DNA of 64,000 nt from the NCBI GenBank assembly GCA_001899585.1, contig MKWE01000003.1:124001-188000 (forward strand), read 5' to 3'. Shown piece by piece: positions 13,845-41,393 of the stretch. A program made the position numbers and the translations under genes. The stretch comes from Rhodospirillales bacterium 70-18 (lineage in GTDB: Bacteria > Pseudomonadota > Alphaproteobacteria > Acetobacterales > Acetobacteraceae). The stretch's first letter is position 1; every line of letters starts with the position of its first letter. The notes under the pieces were generated by a model. It saw only the letters and a program-made list of their open reading frames with translations. It was not told where the DNA came from and did not search any database.

Positions 13845-14750
13845 ATGGTCTCTGCCGTCATCAATGTCGCCCCCGAGGGCAACCTCACGCGGTATCTCCA
13901 GGAGATCCGCAAATTCCCCATGCTCACCGCCGAGGAGGAACTGGACCTTTCCAAGCGCTGGCGCGATACCGAGGACATGGCGGCCGCGCACAAGCTGGTC
14001 ACCTCGCATCTCCGCCTGGTCGCCAAGATCGCCATGGGCTATCGCGGATACGGCCTGCCCCTGGGCGAGCTGATCAGCGAAGGCAATGTCGGCATGATGC
14101 AGGCGGTGAAGCGGTTCGACCCGGATCGCGGCTTCCGTCTGGCCACCTACGCGATGTGGTGGATCCGCGCCGCGATCCAAGAGTACATCCTGCATAGCTG
14201 GTCGCTGGTGAAGATGGGCACCACCGCGGCGCAGAAGAAGCTGTTCTTCAACCTGCGCCGGCTGAAGGGCCAGATGCAGGCGATCGACGACGGCGACCTG
14301 CAGCCCGAGCAGGTGGCCAAGATCGCCCATGCCCTGGCCGTGCCGGAGCAGGACGTGATTAACATGAACCGCCGCCTGACCGCGCCCGACCACAGCCTGA
14401 ACGCCCCCGTCCGCGCCGACAGCGAGGGCGAGTGGCAGGACTGGCTGGTGGACGACAGCGACAGCCAGGAAACCGAGATCGCCGAGCGCCAGGAGATGAC
14501 CGGCCGGCGCGCCCTGCTGGCCGGGGCGTTGTCCTCGCTGAACGAGCGCGAGCGGCACATCCTGATCGAGCGGCGGTTGAAGGACGAGCCGACCACGCTG
14601 GAGGATCTGTCGCAGCAATACGGTATCTCCCGCGAGCGCGTCCGCCAGATCGAGGTGCGCGCCTTCGAGAAGCTGCAGAAGGCCATGCACACGCAGGTGG
14701 CTGAGCAGCGCCGGGCTGTGCGGCCGCCGATGGGCGCGATGGCGTCCTAA
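13845..14750 (+). CDS. rpoH: RNA polymerase heat-shock sigma factor RpoH
   Basis: RpoH (sigma-32) directs RNA polymerase to heat-shock promoters. The 301-residue protein contains region 2 with the RpoH-type block AYRGYGLPLGELISEGNVGMMQAVKRFDPDRGFRLATYAMWWIRAAIQEYI-like sequence (shown in part: GLPLGELISEGNVGMM, FDPDRGFRLATYAMWWI) and the QKKLFFNLRRLK segment characteristic of RpoH. Region 4 carries the helix-turn-helix LEDLSQQYGISRERVRQIE. ATG at 13845 follows GAAAGGAG by six bases. The Hsp20 gene at 40.6 kb is a plausible target in this window. Confidence 0.96.
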   Translation: MVSAVINVAPEGNLTRYLQEIRKFPMLTAEEELDLSKRWRDTEDMAAAHKLVTSHLRLVAKIAMGYRGYGLPLGELISEGNVGMMQAVKRFDPDRGFRLATYAMWWIRAAIQEYILHSWSLVKMGTTAAQKKLFFNLRRLKGQMQAIDDGDLQPEQVAKIAHALAVPEQDVINMNRRLTAPDHSLNAPVRADSEGEWQDWLVDDSDSQETEIAERQEMTGRRALLAGALSSLNERERHILIERRLKDEPTTLEDLSQQYGISRERVRQIEVRAFEKLQKAMHTQVAEQRRAVRPPMGAMAS

Positions 14751-23604: not shown

Positions 23605-23672
23605 CGACGCCGGTTATGGCACCGCAGCCCCGCCGCGCCAAGGCGGCGGGGCCAGCGATTTCACCTGTATCG

Positions 23673-26600
23673 TCAGGCCCGCATCGCCTGCTCGGCCGGC
23701 TCGCTCACCGGATGGGGCAGGTATTTCACGTATTCCTTCGGTACCACCTGCCAGAAATGCGGCAGGCTGCGGTCCCAGTCGTGCAGCAGCATGCGGGCGT
23801 AGCGGCTGTTGGTCTCGTTCGCATGGGTGCTCACCAGATCGCGCAGCACCGCCTCCCAATGCGGCGAGGCCACGCGCTGCCAGGTCAGCGTCTCGGCGTT
23901 CACCCGCAGCGCGAACATCTCGTCCGGATCGTAGATGAAGGCCATGCCGCCGGTGAAGCCGGCGCCGAAATTGTCGCCGATGGTGCCCAGCACCACCACC
24001 GTGCCGCCGGTCATGTATTCGCAGCCGTTGGAGCCGCAGCCCTCCACCACCGCGTCGGCGCCGGAGTTGCGCACCGCGAACCGCTCGCCCGCCTGCCCGG
24101 CCGCGAACAGCCGCCCGGCGGTGGCGCCATACAGCACCGTGTTGCCGATGATGGTGTTGAGCTGGCTGTGCAGGTTGGAGGACGGCGCCGGCCGCACCAC
24201 GATGGTGGCGCCCGACAGCCCCTTGCCCACATAGTCGTTGGCGTCGCCGAACACCTCCAGCTTCAGCCCCTGCACCGCGAAGGCCCCCAGCGACTGCCCG
24301 GCCGAGCCGCGCAGCCGCACCGTCACATGGCCCGGCTGCAGCCCGGTCATGCCGAACTTGCGGGTGATCTTGCTGGAGAGCTTGGTGCCGATGGCGCGGT
24401 GCGTGTTGCGGATATTGTATTGCAACTGCATCTTTTCGCCGCGGGTGAACAGCGCCCCGGCATCGGCGATCATCTGCGCATCCAGCGTCTCCGGCACCTC
24501 GTTGCGCCCCACCAGCGTGCAGTAGCGCGCGTACGGCCCCGGGTCGGCCTGCGCCAGCAGCGGGTTGAGGTCCAGGTCGTCCAGGAAGTCCGAGCCGCGG
24601 CTCACCTGGTGCAGCATGTCGGTCCGCCCGATCACCTCGGCCAGCGTGCGCACGCCCAGCGAGGCCAGGATGTGGCGCACGTCCTCGGCGATGAAGCTGA
24701 ACAGGTTGATCACCTTCTCGGGCGAACCCTCGAACTTCTTGCGCAGCGCCTCGTCCTGCGTGCACACGCCGACGGGGCAGGTGTTGGAGTGGCATTGCCG
24801 CACCATGATGCAGCCCATCGCCACCAGCGAGGCGGTGCCGATGCCGAACTCCTCGGCCCCCAGCATGGCCGCGATCACCACGTCCCGCCCGGTCTTCAGC
24901 CCGCCATCGGTGCGCAGCTTCACGGTATGGCGCAACCGGTTGAGCATCAGCACCTGATGCGCCTCGCTCAGCCCCATCTCCCAGGGCAGGCCGGCATATT
25001 TGATGCTGGACTGGGGCGAGGCGCCGGTGCCGCCGGAATGGCCGCTGATCAGGATCGCGTCCGCCTTGGCCTTGGCCACGCCGGCGGCGATGGTGCCGAT
25101 GCCGCTGCGCGACACCAGCTTCACGCACACTGTCGCCTCGGGGTTGATCTGCTTGAGGTCGTAGATGAGCTGCGCCAGGTCCTCGATCGAATAGATGTCG
25201 TGGTGCGGCGGCGGGCTGATCAGCATCACCCCCGGCGTGGAGTGGCGCAGCTTGGCGATCAGCCCGGTCACCTTGAAGCCGGGCAACTGCCCGCCCTCGC
25301 CGGGCTTGGCGCCCTGGGCCACCTTGATCTCGATCTCGCGGCAGTTGTTCAGGTATTCCGCGGTCACCCCGAACCGGCCGGAGGCGATCTGCTTGATCGC
25401 CGAGGAGGCGTTGTCGCCGTTCGGCCGCGGGGTCGCCCGCGCCGGGTCCTCGCCGCCCTCACCGCTGTCGGACTTGGCGCCGATGCGGTTCATGGCGATG
25501 GACAGCGTCTCATGCGCCTCCGGGCTCAGCGCGCCGAGCGAGATGCCGGGCGAGACCAGCCGCTTGCGGATCTCGGTGATGCTCTCGACATCATCGACCG
25601 GGATCGGCGTGCGCAGGTCCATGCGGAAATCCAGCAGGTCGCGCAGCGCGATCGGCGGCATCTTGCGCACACCCTCGGCATAGCGACGATACAGGCTGAA
25701 GCTGTCGCTGGCCACCGCCTCCTGCAGCATATGGATCAGCCCGCCCTCGAAGGCATGCGTCTCGCCCGTGCGGCGCAGCTTGTACACCCCGCCCACCGGC
25801 AGCATGGTGGCCGGCCGCGACCAGGCCGCGTCGTGCAGGTCCAGCACCTTGCGCGCGATGCCGGACAGGCCGATGCCGGAAATGCGCGACTGCATGCCGG
25901 GGAAGAACTCGCCCACCAGCGCGCGCGACAGGCCGATCGCCTCGAAGCAGTAGCCGCCGCGGTACGACGAGATCACCGAGATGCCCATCTTGGACATCAC
26001 CTTCAGCAACCCCTTGTCCACCGCCTTCTTGTAGCGCTGCACCGCCTCCTTCAGCGTGATCGCGCCGAACAGGCCGCGCCGGTGGCGGTCGGCGATGCTC
26101 TCCTGCGCCAGGTAGGCGTTCAGCGTGGTCGCGCCCACGCCGATCAGCACGGCGAAGTAGTGCACGTCCATGCATTCGGCGGTGCGCACGTTCAGGCTGG
26201 TGAAGGTGCGCAGGGACGAGCGCACCAGATGCGTGTGCACGCCGCCGGTGGCCAGGATCATCGGGATGGCGGCCCGCTCGGGCCCCACCGCCTCGTCGGT
26301 CAGGATCACATGGGTGCAGCCGGCGCGCACGCCCTCCTCGGCCTCGCGGCGGATGCGCTCCAGCCCGGCGCGCAGCCCGGCCTCGCCCTCGGCCACCGGG
26401 AAGGTGCAGTCCACCACGCAGGCGGCGCTGCCCATGAACTCGCGCATGGCGGCGAACTCGGCGGTGGAGAGCACCGGCGATTCGAGCTGCAGCAGGTCGA
26501 ACTGGCTGCTGTCCTCGTCCAGCACGTTGCCCAGGTTGCCCAGCCGGGTCTTGAGCGACATCACCCGCGTCTCGCGCAGGCTGTCGATCGCCGGGTTGGT

Positions 26601-36156: not shown

Positions 36157-37454
36157 CGGCTGGCGGGGCGCCCGACGGGGCGGCATCCGGCGGGCCGGGC
36201 CTGCGCCGGCTGGAGGCCGCGGCGCCGGTGCTGCTGGCGGTGCTGCCGCTGGCGGTCCTGTATTCGCGCGCCGCCGCCGACATGCTGATCAGCCTGCTCG
36301 GCCTGATGTTCCTGCTGCGCTGCGCGCTGGCGGGCGAGTGGGGATGGACGCGGGCGGGCTGGGCGCGGCTGGCCGGGGCGTTCTGGCTGTGGATCGTGCT
36401 GTGCTCGCTGCTGACCGGCCAGGCGCGGCCGGTGCTCCAGGGCCTGGCGATGGGGCGGATGCTGCTGTTCGTGGCGGCGCTGTCGGAATGGCTGCTGGCC
36501 GTGGCCGCGACGCGGCGGCTGTTGTGGTGGGCGGTGCTGGCGGCGGCGGCGTGGATCGGGCTGCAGGCATGGCAGCAATTTCTGCTGGGGGTGAACCTGT
36601 TCGGCGATCCGCGCTGGGGCGACGGGGCGCTGACCGGGCCGTTCCGCAAGCCCGAGGCGGGCAGCCCGTTCGTGCTGCTGCTGTTCCCGGCCTTCCTGCC
36701 GCCGGTGCTGACCGGATTGCGAGGGGCGGGCTGGCGGCGGGTGGCCGGGCTGGCGCTGCTGCTGGCGGTGGTCGCCACCACGGTGCTGATCGGCCAGCGC
36801 ATGCCGACGCTGCTGATGCTGCTGGGGCTGCTGGTGACGGCGCTGCTGATCCGCCGGTTGCGCCTGCCGGTGCTGGCGGCGCTGGCGGTGGGGGGCGTGC
36901 TGCTGGCGCTGACGCCGGTGCTGTCGCCGCCGACCTATGGCAAGCTGGTGCTGCGCTTCGCCGACCAGATGGAACATTTCGGCGACAGCGCCTATGGCCT
37001 GCTGTTCGCGCGCGCCGGGGTGATGCTGGAGGCGCATCCGTGGACGGGGCAGGGGTTCGACGGGTTCCGCCTGCATTGCGGGGACGCGGCCTATCAGCAT
37101 CCGCTGCCCGGCCTGGGCACGACGCGGGCGGATGGCGGTGGGCTGGAGGGGTGCAACCTGCATCCGCACAACTACTACCTGGATGTGGCGGTTTCCGGCG
37201 GGCTGCCCGGGCTGGTGCTGTTCGTGGCGCTGGTGGCGGCCTGGCTGCGGGCCGCCGGGCGCGGGCTGCGCGACGCGGCGGCGGTGCGGGTGGGGCTGTT
37301 CGCCTCGGTGGTGGTGGCGCTGTGGCCGGTTGCCTCGACCTCGGCGCTGTTCACCATTCCGACCGCCGGATGGGTGTTCCTGCTGCTCGGCTGGGCGCTG
37401 GGAGAGGCGCGGGCGGCCGATTCGGGGCTGCCCGGGCGGATGGCGGGGGTTTGA
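36153..37454 (+). CDS. O-antigen ligase family (Wzy_C) membrane protein
   Basis: The 433-residue polytopic protein has about ten to twelve hydrophobic helices and a large periplasmic loop ending in a Wzy_C/WaaL-type core, with AHPWTGQGFDGFR and LHPHNYYLDVAVSGGLPGLVLF; the HNYYL block is the recurrent family motif around the conserved His. Such proteins join O-antigen or other glycans to a lipid or polymerise them. It is translationally coupled to lptB (GTGA), so it probably acts on the LPS exported by Lpt. Ligase and polymerase cannot be told apart from sequence alone. Confidence 0.85.
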   Translation: MTAGGAPDGAASGGPGLRRLEAAAPVLLAVLPLAVLYSRAAADMLISLLGLMFLLRCALAGEWGWTRAGWARLAGAFWLWIVLCSLLTGQARPVLQGLAMGRMLLFVAALSEWLLAVAATRRLLWWAVLAAAAWIGLQAWQQFLLGVNLFGDPRWGDGALTGPFRKPEAGSPFVLLLFPAFLPPVLTGLRGAGWRRVAGLALLLAVVATTVLIGQRMPTLLMLLGLLVTALLIRRLRLPVLAALAVGGVLLALTPVLSPPTYGKLVLRFADQMEHFGDSAYGLLFARAGVMLEAHPWTGQGFDGFRLHCGDAAYQHPLPGLGTTRADGGGLEGCNLHPHNYYLDVAVSGGLPGLVLFVALVAAWLRAAGRGLRDAAAVRVGLFASVVVALWPVASTSALFTIPTAGWVFLLLGWALGEARAADSGLPGRMAGV

Positions 37455-37572
37455 GCCGGAGCGGCGTGGCGGCCATGCAGCACGATTCTTGCTTGCATCT
37501 TGCGGCGCGGCGCGCTGCACTGAGTCATCGCGGCGATCGCCGCCGCGCGTCCGAGCAGTAGAGTCCGCGTAT

Positions 37573-39105
37573 ATGGCGATCGGCCCCCGCCTGGATCTTC
37601 GCCAGTCCCAGTCCCTGGTGATGACGCCGCAACTGCGTCAGGCGATCAAGCTGCTGCAGTTCTCCAATGTCGAGGTCGGCGCCTTCGTCGAGGAGGAGCT
37701 GGAGCGCAACCCGCTGCTGGAGCGCGACGAGAGCAGCGACGCGCCGGCGGCCGAGCGGGCGGCGCCGGACCAGGTGGTGCTGGCGCCGGCCGGCCCGCGC
37801 GACCCGGATGCGGCGCCGATGCCCGGCGAGCGCGATTTCTCCGACCCGGCGGTGCCGGATGTGGGCGAGACGTTGCGCGAGGAGAGCGGGCTGGCCGCCA
37901 GCGGGGCGATGGATGCCGAGGCGGCGGAGACCTACGACCCCGGCGGGGCCTCCGACGGCGGGCGCGGCGCCGGCCAGGGCTTTGAGGACGACGAGCGCGG
38001 CATCGACGATTTCGCCGAGGGCGCCCCCACCTTGCGCGAGCATCTGGGCGAGCAGTTGCGGCTGTCCTTCGCCGACCCGACCGACCGGCTGATCGGCGCC
38101 TACCTGATCGCGCTGCTGGAGCCCTCCGGCCGGCTGTCGGCCGCCCCGGAGGCCCTGGCGCAGGCGATGGGGGCGCCGGTGGAGCGGGTGGAGGCGGTGC
38201 GGGCGCGGATGATGCGCTTCGACCCCACAGGCATGTTCGCCCGCGACCTGCGCGAGTGCCTGGCGGTGCAACTGGCCGAGAAAAACCGGCTGGACCCGGC
38301 GATGGCCGCCCTGCTGGACAATCTGGAACTGCTGGCGCGGCGCGACCACAAGCGGCTGATGCAGGTCTGCGAGGTGGATGGCGCGGACCTCGCCGACATG
38401 ATCGTCGAGATCCGCCGGCTGGACCCCAAGCCTGGCGCCACCTGGGACGCCACGCCGCCGCAGCCGGTGGTACCGGACGTGCTGATGCGCGCCGCCCCGG
38501 ATGGCGTGTGGATCCTGGAACTGAACCCCGAGACCATGCCGCGCGTCCTGGTCAACCACAGCTTCAGCGCCCGCGTGCTGCCGCGCGCCAGCAAGGACGA
38601 CAAGGCCTTCCTGTCCGAGAAGCTGGCCACCGCCACCTGGCTGGTGAAGTCGCTGCAGCAGCGCGCGCAGACCATCCTGAAGGTGGCCAGCGAGATCGTG
38701 CGCCGGCAGGACGGGTTCTTCTGGCATGGTGTCAGTCATCTGCGGCCGCTGATCCTGCGCGATATCGCCGAGGCGGTGGAGATGCATGAAAGCACCGTCA
38801 GCCGGGTGACCGCCAACAAGTACATGGCGACACCGCGCGGCATCTATGAACTTAAATATTTTTTCACAACTGCGATCCAATCAAGCAGCGGCGGCGAAAC
38901 TCACTCCGCGGAGGCCATCCGCCACCGTATCCGGGCTCTCGTGGACGCCGAAACGTCGGACGATATCCTTTCGGACGATGCTATCGTTGCTTCCCTGCGC
39001 AAGGAGGGCGTGGACATCGCACGGCGAACCGTGGCCAAATACCGCGATGCGCTCCACATACCGAGTTCCGTGCAGCGCAAACGGGAGAAGGCCGTGCCGG
39101 GCTGA
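37573..39105 (+). CDS. rpoN: RNA polymerase sigma-54 factor RpoN
   Basis: RpoN directs polymerase to -24/-12 promoters that need an AAA+ activator. The 510-residue protein has region I (LRQSQSLVMTPQLRQAIKLLQ), an acidic linker (about 55–150), the core-binding domain, the helix-turn-helix IAEAVEMHESTVSRVTANKYM and the RpoN box ARRTVAKYR near the C-terminus. ATG at 37573 gives the usual MAIGPRLDLRQ start. From about 38850 to the end, codon use is clearly less GC-biased (CTT, AAA, TAT, TTT, ACA, ACT, CAA, TCA) than in the rest of the gene. Confidence 0.97.
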   Translation: MAIGPRLDLRQSQSLVMTPQLRQAIKLLQFSNVEVGAFVEEELERNPLLERDESSDAPAAERAAPDQVVLAPAGPRDPDAAPMPGERDFSDPAVPDVGETLREESGLAASGAMDAEAAETYDPGGASDGGRGAGQGFEDDERGIDDFAEGAPTLREHLGEQLRLSFADPTDRLIGAYLIALLEPSGRLSAAPEALAQAMGAPVERVEAVRARMMRFDPTGMFARDLRECLAVQLAEKNRLDPAMAALLDNLELLARRDHKRLMQVCEVDGADLADMIVEIRRLDPKPGATWDATPPQPVVPDVLMRAAPDGVWILELNPETMPRVLVNHSFSARVLPRASKDDKAFLSEKLATATWLVKSLQQRAQTILKVASEIVRRQDGFFWHGVSHLRPLILRDIAEAVEMHESTVSRVTANKYMATPRGIYELKYFFTTAIQSSSGGETHSAEAIRHRIRALVDAETSDDILSDDAIVASLRKEGVDIARRTVAKYRDALHIPSSVQRKREKAVPG

Positions 39106-40190: not shown

Positions 40191-40643
40191 TCAGACGTCA
40201 GGCTCGCCTTCCACCACGCGGCCGGCGCCGTTGGTGCCCTTGCTGATGCGGATCGTCTTCACCTTGGCCTCCGGTTGGGGGCGGGCGAGGTCGATATGCA
40301 GCAGGCCGTTATCAAGCCAGGCGCCCTTCACCTCGATGCCCTCGGCCAGCACGAAGGCGCGCTGGAACTGCCTGGCGGCGATGCCGCGATGCAGGAACAC
40401 ACGGCCCTGGCTGTCGTCGGTCTGTCGGCCACGGATCACCAACTGGTTGTCTTCCTGCGTTATTTGCAGGTCATCCATGGTGAAGCCGGCGACGGCGAGC
40501 GAGATGCGCAGCCCGGTCGGCCCGGTCTGCTCGATATTGTAGGGCGGATAGCCGTCCGACGAGGTCTTGGCGGCGCGTTCGAGCATCTGTTCGAGATGAT
40601 CGAAGCCGAGGAACATCGGGGACGCGAACATACGGCCGGTCAT
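40191..40643 (-). CDS. Hsp20 family small heat-shock protein
   Basis: This 150-residue IbpA-like chaperone binds unfolding proteins to prevent aggregation. The alpha-crystallin domain spans about residues 33–130, with YPPYNIEQTGPTGLRISLAVAGF-type sequence at its start (shown in part: YNIEQTGPTGLRISLAVAGF), GRVFLHRGIAARQFQRAFVL and NGLLHIDLARP. The upstream region carries a sigma-32-like promoter and an RNA-thermometer hairpin over the ribosome site, so both transcription and translation are probably heat-responsive. Confidence 0.94.
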   Translation of the reverse strand: MTGRMFASPMFLGFDHLEQMLERAAKTSSDGYPPYNIEQTGPTGLRISLAVAGFTMDDLQITQEDNQLVIRGRQTDDSQGRVFLHRGIAARQFQRAFVLAEGIEVKGAWLDNGLLHIDLARPQPEAKVKTIRISKGTNGAGRVVEGEPDV

Positions 40644-40648
40644 GGCGG

Positions 40649-40669
40649 GCCTCCTCCTTGGAGCGAAGC
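40649..40669 (-). promoter_or_regulatory. ROSE-type RNA thermometer hairpin at the hsp20 Shine-Dalgarno
   Basis: In the minus-strand RNA just before the ATG, GCUUC-G-CUC pairs with GAGGAGGC around a CAAG loop: eight base pairs with one bulged G. UCGCU lies opposite AGGA, the hallmark (UYGCU with bulged G opposite the Shine-Dalgarno) of ROSE elements known from small heat-shock genes of alphaproteobacteria. A further small stem (GUUG/CAAC) lies upstream. Melting at high temperature would free the ribosome site. Confidence 0.65.
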
Positions 40670-40705
40670 GATGCCGGGCCCCGTTGCGGCAACCCGACCG
40701 ACGTT

Positions 40706-40734
40706 ATTTTGGCAACCGGGACCGTGCTTGCAAG
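40706..40734 (-). promoter_or_regulatory. Heat-shock (sigma-32-like) promoter candidate of hsp20
   Basis: On the minus strand CTTGCA (40734–40729) and CCAAAAT (40712–40706) are 16 bp apart. They resemble the RpoH -35 and -10 elements and would give a leader of about 55–60 nt. Confidence 0.45.
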
Positions 40735-40823
40735 CCCCTGGCGGCGAGTCGCGCGAAGATTGCGCCGGCGGGGAATGGCGGGACGTTGTTGATCCGCGCG
40801 GGTGCGGCGGCTACATGCCGTGC

Positions 40824-41393
40824 ATGTCAAACGAGTCCGCCGCCATGCCGTCGCCGCACCCCCTCGATCTGTCGGGCGATGCCGAGACGCTGCCCATCCT
40901 GATCGCGCCCAACGCGGTGCTGAAGGCACGCGCCCGCGCGGTGCTGCCGGCCGATACCGAGGCGGTGCGCGCGCTGATCCCGCGCATGTTCACCACCATG
41001 TACAAGGCCCCCGGCATCGGCCTGGCCGCGCCCCAGGTGGGGGTGAAGCTGCGCCTGGCGGTTGTGGACCTGATGCCCGACGACGCTCGCGCCCCGGTGG
41101 TGCTGATCAACCCCGAGGTGGTGGCCGCCAGCGCCGAGCTGGCCACCCGCGAGGAGGGGTGCCTGTCGCTGCCCGGCCAGTATGCCGACGTGACCCGCCC
41201 GGCGCGGGTGAAGGTGCGCTTCCTCGACCAGTCCGGCGCGCGCCGCGAGATCGAGGCCGATGGCCTCCTGGCCGCCTGCCTGCAGCACGAGATCGACCAT
41301 CTCGATGGGGTGCTGTTCATCGACCACATCTCGGCGCTGAAGCGCAACATGCTGCTGCGCAAGCTGGCCAAGGAGCAGCGCCAGAAAGGATAG
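40824..41393 (+). CDS. def: Peptide deformylase
   Basis: The enzyme removes the formyl group from the N-terminus of new proteins using a metal ion. The 189-residue protein has all three motifs: [20 protein letters not shown] (Cys ligand) and [12 protein letters not shown] (two His ligands and the catalytic Glu). ATG at 40824 is used; ATG at 40815 or 40845 are alternatives that change only the non-conserved lead. It is followed five bases later by fmt, the classic def–fmt pair. Confidence 0.95.

What the first reader, a model, noticed from the sequence alone, without database searches (positions are those of the whole stretch)
40644..40734. ROSE-like RNA thermometer plus sigma-32-type promoter for hsp20
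The hairpin directly before the hsp20 start pairs the Shine-Dalgarno with a UCGCU segment leaving a single bulged G, the defining ROSE arrangement. A CTTGCA-N16-CCAAAAT promoter lies at a fitting distance. rpoH is also in the window, giving a two-layer heat response.
Basis: partly seen in the sequence, partly recalled or inferred. Interest (0 to 1): 0.6.

Follow-up and report, generated by a model that had tools for sequence, protein, structure and literature searches.

The report
Short heat-sensing RNA before hsp20
The start of this small heat-shock gene's message folds into two small RNA hairpins, one hiding the ribosome-binding site, and this layout is kept by selection across the acetic-acid-bacteria family, so it is very probably a compact form of a known RNA thermometer (ROSE) that the standard RNA library does not recognise.

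Summary
A heat-shock-type promoter (CTTGCA-N16-CCAAAAT, 40734-40706, minus) precedes a leader of about 55 nt with two hairpins. Hairpin II (40669-40649) pairs UCGCU with the Shine-Dalgarno, leaving one bulged G (40664). Rfam gives no ROSE hit here, although the same tool finds ROSE in Bradyrhizobium and ROSE_2 in E. coli. Comparison supports the structure: 108 of 110 fetched orthologue leaders carry the hairpin II motif. On 88 dereplicated leaders 94.6% of pair cells are paired, with 112 double-change cells against 38 when shuffled. Parsimony on a tree gives 69 pair-to-pair double changes, against at most 18 with partners slid. A covariance model finds the element in 138 of 200 Acetobacteraceae genomes, once each, and in 0 of 285 other alphaproteobacterial genomes. 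Hairpin I resembles that of rhizobial ROSE (RF00435); hairpin II resembles the core of E. coli ROSE_2 (RF01832); the middle hairpin is absent. Best reading: a compact two-hairpin ROSE-like RNA thermometer under RpoH control, like the proven Pseudomonas ibpA elements. Melting was not shown, and in-silico melting is uninformative. It is a new variant of a known kind.

The parts
40729..40734 (-). -35-like element CTTGCA of an RpoH (sigma-32)-type promoter
   Evidence: Exact match; CTTG plus a CCAANAT-like -10 at the right spacing in 82 of 88 dereplicated leaders, shuffled mean 1.6 (max 4), coding control 3 of 88
40706..40712 (-). -10-like element CCAAAAT, spacer 16
   Evidence: spacer 16 in 65 and 15 in 15 of the 82 leaders
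40697..40699 (-). probable transcription start (inferred from promoter spacing)
   Evidence: Inference only; no mapped start site
40675..40696 (-). hairpin I: CGGGUU-G-CC (GCAAC) GG-GGCCCG, bulged G at 40690, kept closed by compensatory changes across the family
   Evidence: 68 of the 69 tree-inferred double changes lie in its outer 7 pairs; column of G40690 is G in 88 of 88; same hairpin at the 5' end of RF00435
40649..40669 (-). hairpin II: GCUUC-G-CUC (CAAG) GAG-GAGGC, anti-SD UCGCU 40666-40662, bulged G at 40664; sequesters the Shine-Dalgarno
   Evidence: predicted -10.0 kcal/mol at 37 C
40650..40659 (-). Shine-Dalgarno region AAGGAGGAGG
   Evidence: Sequence
40645..40697 (-). whole element as matched by covariance model R1
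   Evidence: 58.1 bits; next best in the window 13.1, next best in the genome 20.7 at E 2.5
40191..40643 (-). hsp20 (IbpA-like small heat shock protein), ATG at 40643-40641
   Evidence: Pfam HSP20 63.4 bits; best NCBIfam IbpA 119.9 bits, below its cut-off of 212
13878..14690 (+). rpoH (sigma-32), the probable activator of the promoter
   Evidence: TIGR02392, 370.3 bits, over cut-off (window position by subtraction of 124000)

Best explanation
It is a compact, two-hairpin ROSE-like RNA thermometer in the 5' leader of an IbpA-type hsp20. RpoH makes the message from the CTTGCA-N16-CCAAAAT promoter (inferred from sequence and conservation). At growth temperature hairpin II pairs UCGCU with the Shine-Dalgarno and blocks the ribosome; the pairing is shown by comparison. 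The bulged G and the U.G/U-A pairs below it make hairpin II heat-labile; on heat shock it opens and Hsp20 is translated (inferred from Pseudomonas, E. coli and Bradyrhizobium elements). Hairpin I stays folded and probably protects the 5' end or keeps hairpin II in register (inferred). So heat acts twice, on transcription and on translation.
For: Motif in 108 of 110 orthologue leaders (regex written after the leaders had been printed). Covariation on A1, misses included: 94.6% of cells paired, 112 double-change cells against 37.8 +- 5.1 shuffled, and at most 63.9% paired when slid. 69 pair-to-pair double changes on a tree, against at most 18 slid; outer seven pairs of hairpin I 68, against a mean of 7.2, max 21, with permuted partners. 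Model R1: 138 of 200 family genomes, one each; 29 of 29 hit loci examined encode the orthologue. Conserved promoter. A two-hairpin ROSE-like leader of the same plan, under sigma-32, is proven in Pseudomonas (PMC3669281, passages). Deleting the bulged G reduces heat induction in P. stuartii oppF (PMC11342760, passages).
Against: No Rfam ROSE match in the window or in 17 related loci at gathering. The leader does not fold better than shuffles. The full-leader MFE at 30 C shows the modelled hairpin II with bulge in only 45 of 85 and hairpin I in 32 of 85 leaders. SD closure beats flank-shuffled controls clearly for the window (1 of 40 as closed) but weakly overall (mean 30% as closed). No sharp melting is predicted below 60 C, though E. 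coli ibpA and a Bradyrhizobium Rfam-ROSE leader do not melt in silico either. Hairpin II (-10.0 kcal/mol) is more stable than the -4.1 to -7.6 reported for Pseudomonas. Hairpin II has almost no double changes (1 cell in A1, 0 in A2), because its SD side is constrained.
Confidence: 0.85

Rival explanations
1. Titration switch rather than thermometer: the two-hairpin leader is mainly the binding site by which Hsp20 itself represses translation of its own mRNA; heat acts by drawing Hsp20 off onto unfolded proteins, and hairpin II need not melt by itself.
For: E. coli IbpA does this through its 5' UTR and needs R93, with Y34 also important (PMC10474464, passages). The window protein keeps both, as R91 and Y32, and also R83 and R97. 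Hairpin II is predicted to be rather stable. Hairpin I is conserved more than a passive clamp would need.
Against: The E. coli leader is described as an RNA thermometer as well, so this adds to the thermometer more than it replaces it. K98 of E. coli is A96 here. No binding data for any alphaproteobacterium were seen.
Confidence: 0.09
2. A static translational brake: hairpin II only lowers basal hsp20 translation and does not open in the physiological range, leaving heat control to RpoH.
For: Predicted SD opening rises only from 0.08 at 30 C to 0.18 at 42 C for the window; hairpin II is GC-rich.
Against: The destabilising bulged G and wobble-tolerant pairs are kept in all or nearly all rows, which a static brake would not require. 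Known ROSE leaders give equally flat in-silico curves.
Confidence: 0.04
3. The conserved palindromes are DNA sites for a regulator (operator), not RNA structure.
For: They lie just downstream of the promoter and are inverted repeats.
Against: Hairpin I keeps pairing while its letters change (68 double changes in seven pairs), the opposite of a sequence-read operator. Hairpin II spacing varies (spacer lengths 1 to 9) and one arm is the SD.
Confidence: 0.01
4. Chance hairpin in a GC-rich leader.
For: Single-sequence folding energy is no better than shuffles.
Against: Family-wide conservation and covariation.
Confidence: 0.01

Closest known systems
Short ROSE-like RNA thermometers of Pseudomonas ibpA (PMC3669281)
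   Same: Two hairpins, about 60-nt leader, U(U/C)GCU against the SD in the 3' hairpin, start codon outside it, sigma-32-type promoter, ibpA-type gene (passages)
   Different: Hairpin II here is more stable by prediction (-10.0 against -4.1 to -7.6 kcal/mol). The Pseudomonas leader sequences were not at hand, so hairpin I could not be compared.
ROSE, Rfam RF00435 (rhizobial hspA type)
   Same: Hairpin I is the same module, YGCC..GGG with one unpaired G (model line; model R2 finds it in a Bradyrhizobium ROSE at its 5' end, 19.1 bits); UUGCU with bulged G opposite the SD
   Different: RF00435 has a middle hairpin and a long SD stem that takes in the AUG; both are absent here. No match above threshold; 0 RF00435 hits before the orthologue in 60 relatives
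ROSE_2, Rfam RF01832 (E. coli ibpA)
   Same: The SD-hairpin core CUC-G-CUG/CAGGAG of E. coli is close to the CUCGCUC/GAGGAG form found in this family
   Different: Hairpin I differs (R2 finds nothing in the E. coli locus); no RF01832 match in the window
ROSE-type leader of the second hsp20 in the same genome (L185, G000:C53)
   Same: Hairpin I matched by R2 (18.6 bits); CCUUGCU..AGGAGG at the SD
   Different: By eye it has an extra middle hairpin; R1 gives only 20.5 bits; also not matched by Rfam

Membership tests
ROSE-like RNA thermometers (broad class of the literature) | U(U/C)GCU pairing the Shine-Dalgarno in the 3'-proximal hairpin | tested here: met
   UCGCU 40666-40662 pairs AGGA; YYCGCTC motif before the SD in 108 of 110 leaders
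ROSE-like RNA thermometers (broad class of the literature) | single bulged G in that pairing | tested here: met
   G40664; column G in 88 of 88 rows, flanking pairs kept
ROSE-like RNA thermometers (broad class of the literature) | two to four hairpins in the leader of a small heat shock gene | tested here: met
   Two hairpins; HSP20 gene
ROSE-like RNA thermometers (broad class of the literature) | hairpin opens on heating and releases translation | not testable with these tools
   In-silico melting is flat for this leader and for two yardsticks
Rfam RF00435 ROSE | covariance score at or above gathering (45 bits) | tested here: not met
   No match in the window or up to E 10 in 40500-40900; positive control L118 57.6 bits
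Rfam RF00435 ROSE | 5' hairpin with one unpaired G (YGCC..GGG) | tested here: met
Rfam RF00435 ROSE | middle hairpin, and SD stem that includes the start codon | tested here: not met
   Only 40674-40670 lies between the two hairpins; AUG 40643-40641 lies outside hairpin II
Rfam RF01832 ROSE_2 | covariance score at or above gathering (65 bits) | tested here: not met
   No match; positive control E. coli ibpA 100.4 bits
RpoH (sigma-32) promoter | CTTG -35 and CCxxxxT-type -10 at 15-17 spacing, conserved at the gene | tested here: met
   82 of 88 leaders, shuffled mean 1.6
RpoH (sigma-32) promoter | mapped start site and RpoH dependence | not testable with these tools
   No transcript data for this organism

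The most novel reading that the evidence does not exclude
Hairpin I is not a passive clamp. Its YGCC..GGG bulged G, invariant while nearly every outer pair changes, is shared with rhizobial ROSE and with the second hsp20 leader of the same genome. It would be a second active module, either the docking site for Hsp20 self-repression or a kinetic partner for hairpin II, so that one 55-nt leader reads both temperature and free chaperone. The alphaproteobacterial ROSE would then be modular, with the middle hairpin dispensable.
Probability: 0.2. Interest if true: 0.55.

Novelty: new variant of a known kind. Interest (0 to 1): 0.36.

Why it matters
It gives a covariance-supported model of a compact ROSE-like element found in most sampled Acetobacteraceae genomes, acetic acid bacteria of industry included, which Rfam release 15 misses at this gene. 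It seems to isolate the conserved core of alphaproteobacterial ROSE (5' bulged-G hairpin plus SD hairpin) by natural absence of the middle hairpin. That makes the role of the 5' hairpin, called not fully understood in PMC3669281, directly testable.

Tried and rejected
Single-sequence folding and in-silico melting did not separate this leader from shuffles or from known thermometers in any decisive way and are not used as support. Rfam at permissive threshold gave only chance-level matches to unrelated families. CIRCE/HrcA-type operator: considered (recalled, no call) and rejected, since spacing varies and pairs covary. A fuller promoter test on all heat-shock genes of the genome could not be run, so promoter evidence rests on orthologues and on the window. 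Published start sites: in G. oxydans 621H an RF00435 ROSE was reported before an Hsp20 gene (GOX_RS07835) with no start site detected (PMC5756330, passages). From its 84-nt length it is probably the other hsp20 paralogue (L119 also spans 84 nt), so it does not settle this leader; that match is inference. Papers describing this leader in Acetobacteraceae: none in the listings. The 2005 survey of more than 40 ROSE candidates (Waldminghaus et al.) was seen only as cited and could include some.

Rows dropped before counts: L003 (copy of the window) and L004 (paralogue) before the 110; 22 leaders by dereplication at 85% or because under 90 nt (110 to 88); L091 and L110, the two without the motif, from A2 and model R1 (they are in A1 and); 20 of 86 rows from A3 (22-nt minimum, duplicates, and L027, which I left out). 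L029 was dropped from the thermodynamic set (a motif copy inside the gene was taken, no SD found); L091 and L110 are not in it either. R1 was built partly from genomes searched; counting only handles above G035, 112 of 164 match, though some of these may equal records of genome contigs.

Full report
What was checked. The window lies in a 5.05 Mb genome of 57 contigs. The hsp20 gene is 40191-40643 on the minus strand, so its leader is read from higher to lower coordinates. It is the only site of the form CTTGCA-N15..17-CCAANAT in the window. The start codon is at 40643-40641 and the Shine-Dalgarno region AAGGAGGAGG at 40659-40650. rpoH is present at about 13878-14690 plus. The large ORF at 37132-39105 plus, beyond the 3' end of hsp20, holds rpoN (sigma-54), followed by an HPF-type gene.

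Is it more than chance? Not by folding energy: four stretches of the leader fold no better than dinucleotide shuffles (z from -0.33 to +0.64), and the shortest stretch takes another fold. So I turned to relatives. Orthologues were fetched from unnamed relatives (30 loci) and from named genomes (80 loci); the titles of the latter are mostly Acetobacteraceae, or bins named only as Rhodospirillales or Proteobacteria. Of the 110 leaders, 108 carry a YYCGCTC motif followed within 14 nt by a Shine-Dalgarno. The pattern was written after I had seen the leaders. The two exceptions are L091 and L110.

Structure. MAFFT, without any structure, aligned 88 dereplicated leaders (A1). Two hairpins stand out. 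RNAalifold on its own predicts both. With the structure named, 94.6% of cells form standard pairs. There are 112 cells with changes on both sides (shuffled 37.8 +- 5.1, 0 of 500 reach it), and sliding the partners by one to three columns drops pairing to 42-64%. On the trimmed alignment A2 (86 rows, the two misses left out) the numbers are 94.7% and 114. Because cells are not events, I put the pairs on a tree of the hsp20 coding sequences by parsimony. There are 69 pair-to-pair double changes in all, against 1-18 with slid partners. For the seven outer pairs of hairpin I there are 68, against a mean of 7.2 (max 21) in 61 partner permutations. Hairpin II has almost no double changes, because its 3' side is the ribosome-binding site. 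Its evidence is compatible single changes (C-G to U-G and the like) and the invariant bulged G (88 of 88).

Anatomy. Hairpin I, 40696-40675, is CGGGUU-G-CC/GG-GGCCCG with G40690 unpaired; the family consensus is CGGGnYGCC-n-GGGnCCCG, and the G and the C after it are invariant in 88 rows. Hairpin II, 40669-40649, is GCUUC-G-CUC/GAG-GAGGC with G40664 unpaired. In 31 of the 108 leaders the 5' arm reads UCUCGCUC instead of CUUCGCUC, which still pairs through wobbles. Some rows with a UUCG-type loop in hairpin I keep the bulged G (for example L028, L030, L085). The promoter's -10 element ends 57-106 nt (median 66) before the start codon in the 82 leaders that have it, so both hairpins should be in the transcript; the start site itself is inferred.

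Spread. A covariance model of the element (R1, 54 positions, 17 pairs) scores 58.1 bits at 40645-40697. The next best in the window is 13.1 and in the whole genome 20.7, E 2.5. It matches 138 of 200 genomes of the family at E 0.001 or better, once each (112 of 164 if only handles above G035 are counted), and 0 of 285 genomes of the class outside the family (289 searched, 4 of them of the family). Strict filters make these lower bounds. All 29 new hit loci that were examined, of 138 hits, encode the hsp20 orthologue.

Why Rfam misses it. RF00435 and RF01832 are in the library and work: Bradyrhizobium L118 57.6 bits, E. coli ibpA 100.4 bits. In 60 relatives RF00435 finds 5 elements in 4 genomes. 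By coordinates, four of the five lie directly before other hsp20 genes listed, and the fifth (G024, 23655-23749) lies about 400 bases further up on the same strand. None lies before the orthologue. The Rfam alignment shows the reason: RF00435 begins with the same YGCC..GGG hairpin, unpaired G included, but then has a middle hairpin and a long SD stem that takes in the AUG; both are missing here. A model of hairpin I alone (R2) gave 19 weak matches (E 0.02 to 1.3) in 42 other leaders and ROSE loci. 18 are on the sense strand, among them the 5' end of the Bradyrhizobium ROSE and the second hsp20 leader of this genome; none is in the E. coli locus. Each match alone is weak; strand and position make the case. 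Outside the family, 8 of 10 orthologue leaders and 4 of 4 other hsp20 leaders carry U(U/C)GCU before a Shine-Dalgarno, and so do 19 of 20 leaders of the second paralogue, mostly from within the family (shuffled means 0.4, 0.1 and 0.6).

How it most likely works. A two-hairpin ROSE-like leader of the same plan under sigma-32 is proven in Pseudomonas, where hairpin II melts and hairpin I does not, and where stabilising changes reduce or abolish expression (PMC3669281, passages). In P. stuartii oppF, deleting the bulged G lowers heat induction and a crystal structure shows it bulged from the stem (PMC11342760, passages). By analogy, this leader blocks hsp20 translation at growth temperature and opens on heat shock while RpoH raises transcription. 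Shown here: the promoter sequence and its conservation, both hairpins, and SD sequestration by conservation and covariation. Inferred: start site, RpoH dependence, melting.

Results against. Predicted SD opening is flat: median unpaired probability 0.09 at 30 C and 0.13 at 42 C; window 0.08 to 0.18. The yardsticks are as flat (E. coli ibpA 0.10 to 0.14; Bradyrhizobium 0.30 to 0.36), so this neither supports nor refutes. Compared with flank shuffles, the window is unusually closed (1 of 40 as closed), but over 85 leaders 30% of shuffles are as closed. The full-leader MFE shows the modelled hairpin II in 45 of 85 and hairpin I in 32 of 85. Hairpin II is more stable than reported for Pseudomonas.

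A second layer. E. coli IbpA represses its own translation through its 5' UTR and needs R93 and an aromatic residue at 34; the authors note that both are well conserved in alphaproteobacterial IbpAs (PMC10474464, passages). The window protein has R91 and Y32 at these places, so titration control is a live addition to the thermometer.

Verdict. It belongs to the broad ROSE-like class by sequence and structure, with heat response untested; it is not a member of RF00435 or RF01832 as those models define them, because features of those models were tested and not met. Novelty: new variant of a known kind.

Noticed in passing
L185 (G000:C53:297028-297292): The same genome has a second hsp20 with a ROSE-type leader (CCUUGCU..AGGAGG, apparently three hairpins) that Rfam also does not report; 19 of 20 fetched leaders of this paralogue carry the motif.
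   Followed up: partly
L006, L035, L038, L058, L060 leaders: A few leaders carry an extra 15-25 nt, possibly a third hairpin, between hairpins I and II, like an intermediate towards three-hairpin ROSE.
   Followed up: no
L087, about 1432-1497: The anti-Shine-Dalgarno stretch looks duplicated in tandem (TGCTTCGCCTC / TGCTTCGCTC), perhaps two alternative pairing partners.
   Followed up: no
L091 and L110 leaders: The two orthologue leaders without the hairpin II motif; L110 still passes the promoter test, so it may be RpoH-driven without a thermometer.
   Followed up: no
L120 (G024:C23), 1137-1233 and 1501-1595: Two RF00435 ROSE elements about 270 bases apart on one strand in one genome.
   Followed up: no
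window 40671-40662: UCGCU occurs twice in a row (UCGCUUCGCU), so hairpin II could slip by one register in this species; the upstream copy is not conserved in relatives.
   Followed up: partly
L038: A record titled Solirubrobacterales bacterium holds an hsp20 89% identical to the window's, with the same leader as L006; probably a mis-binned contig.
   Followed up: no
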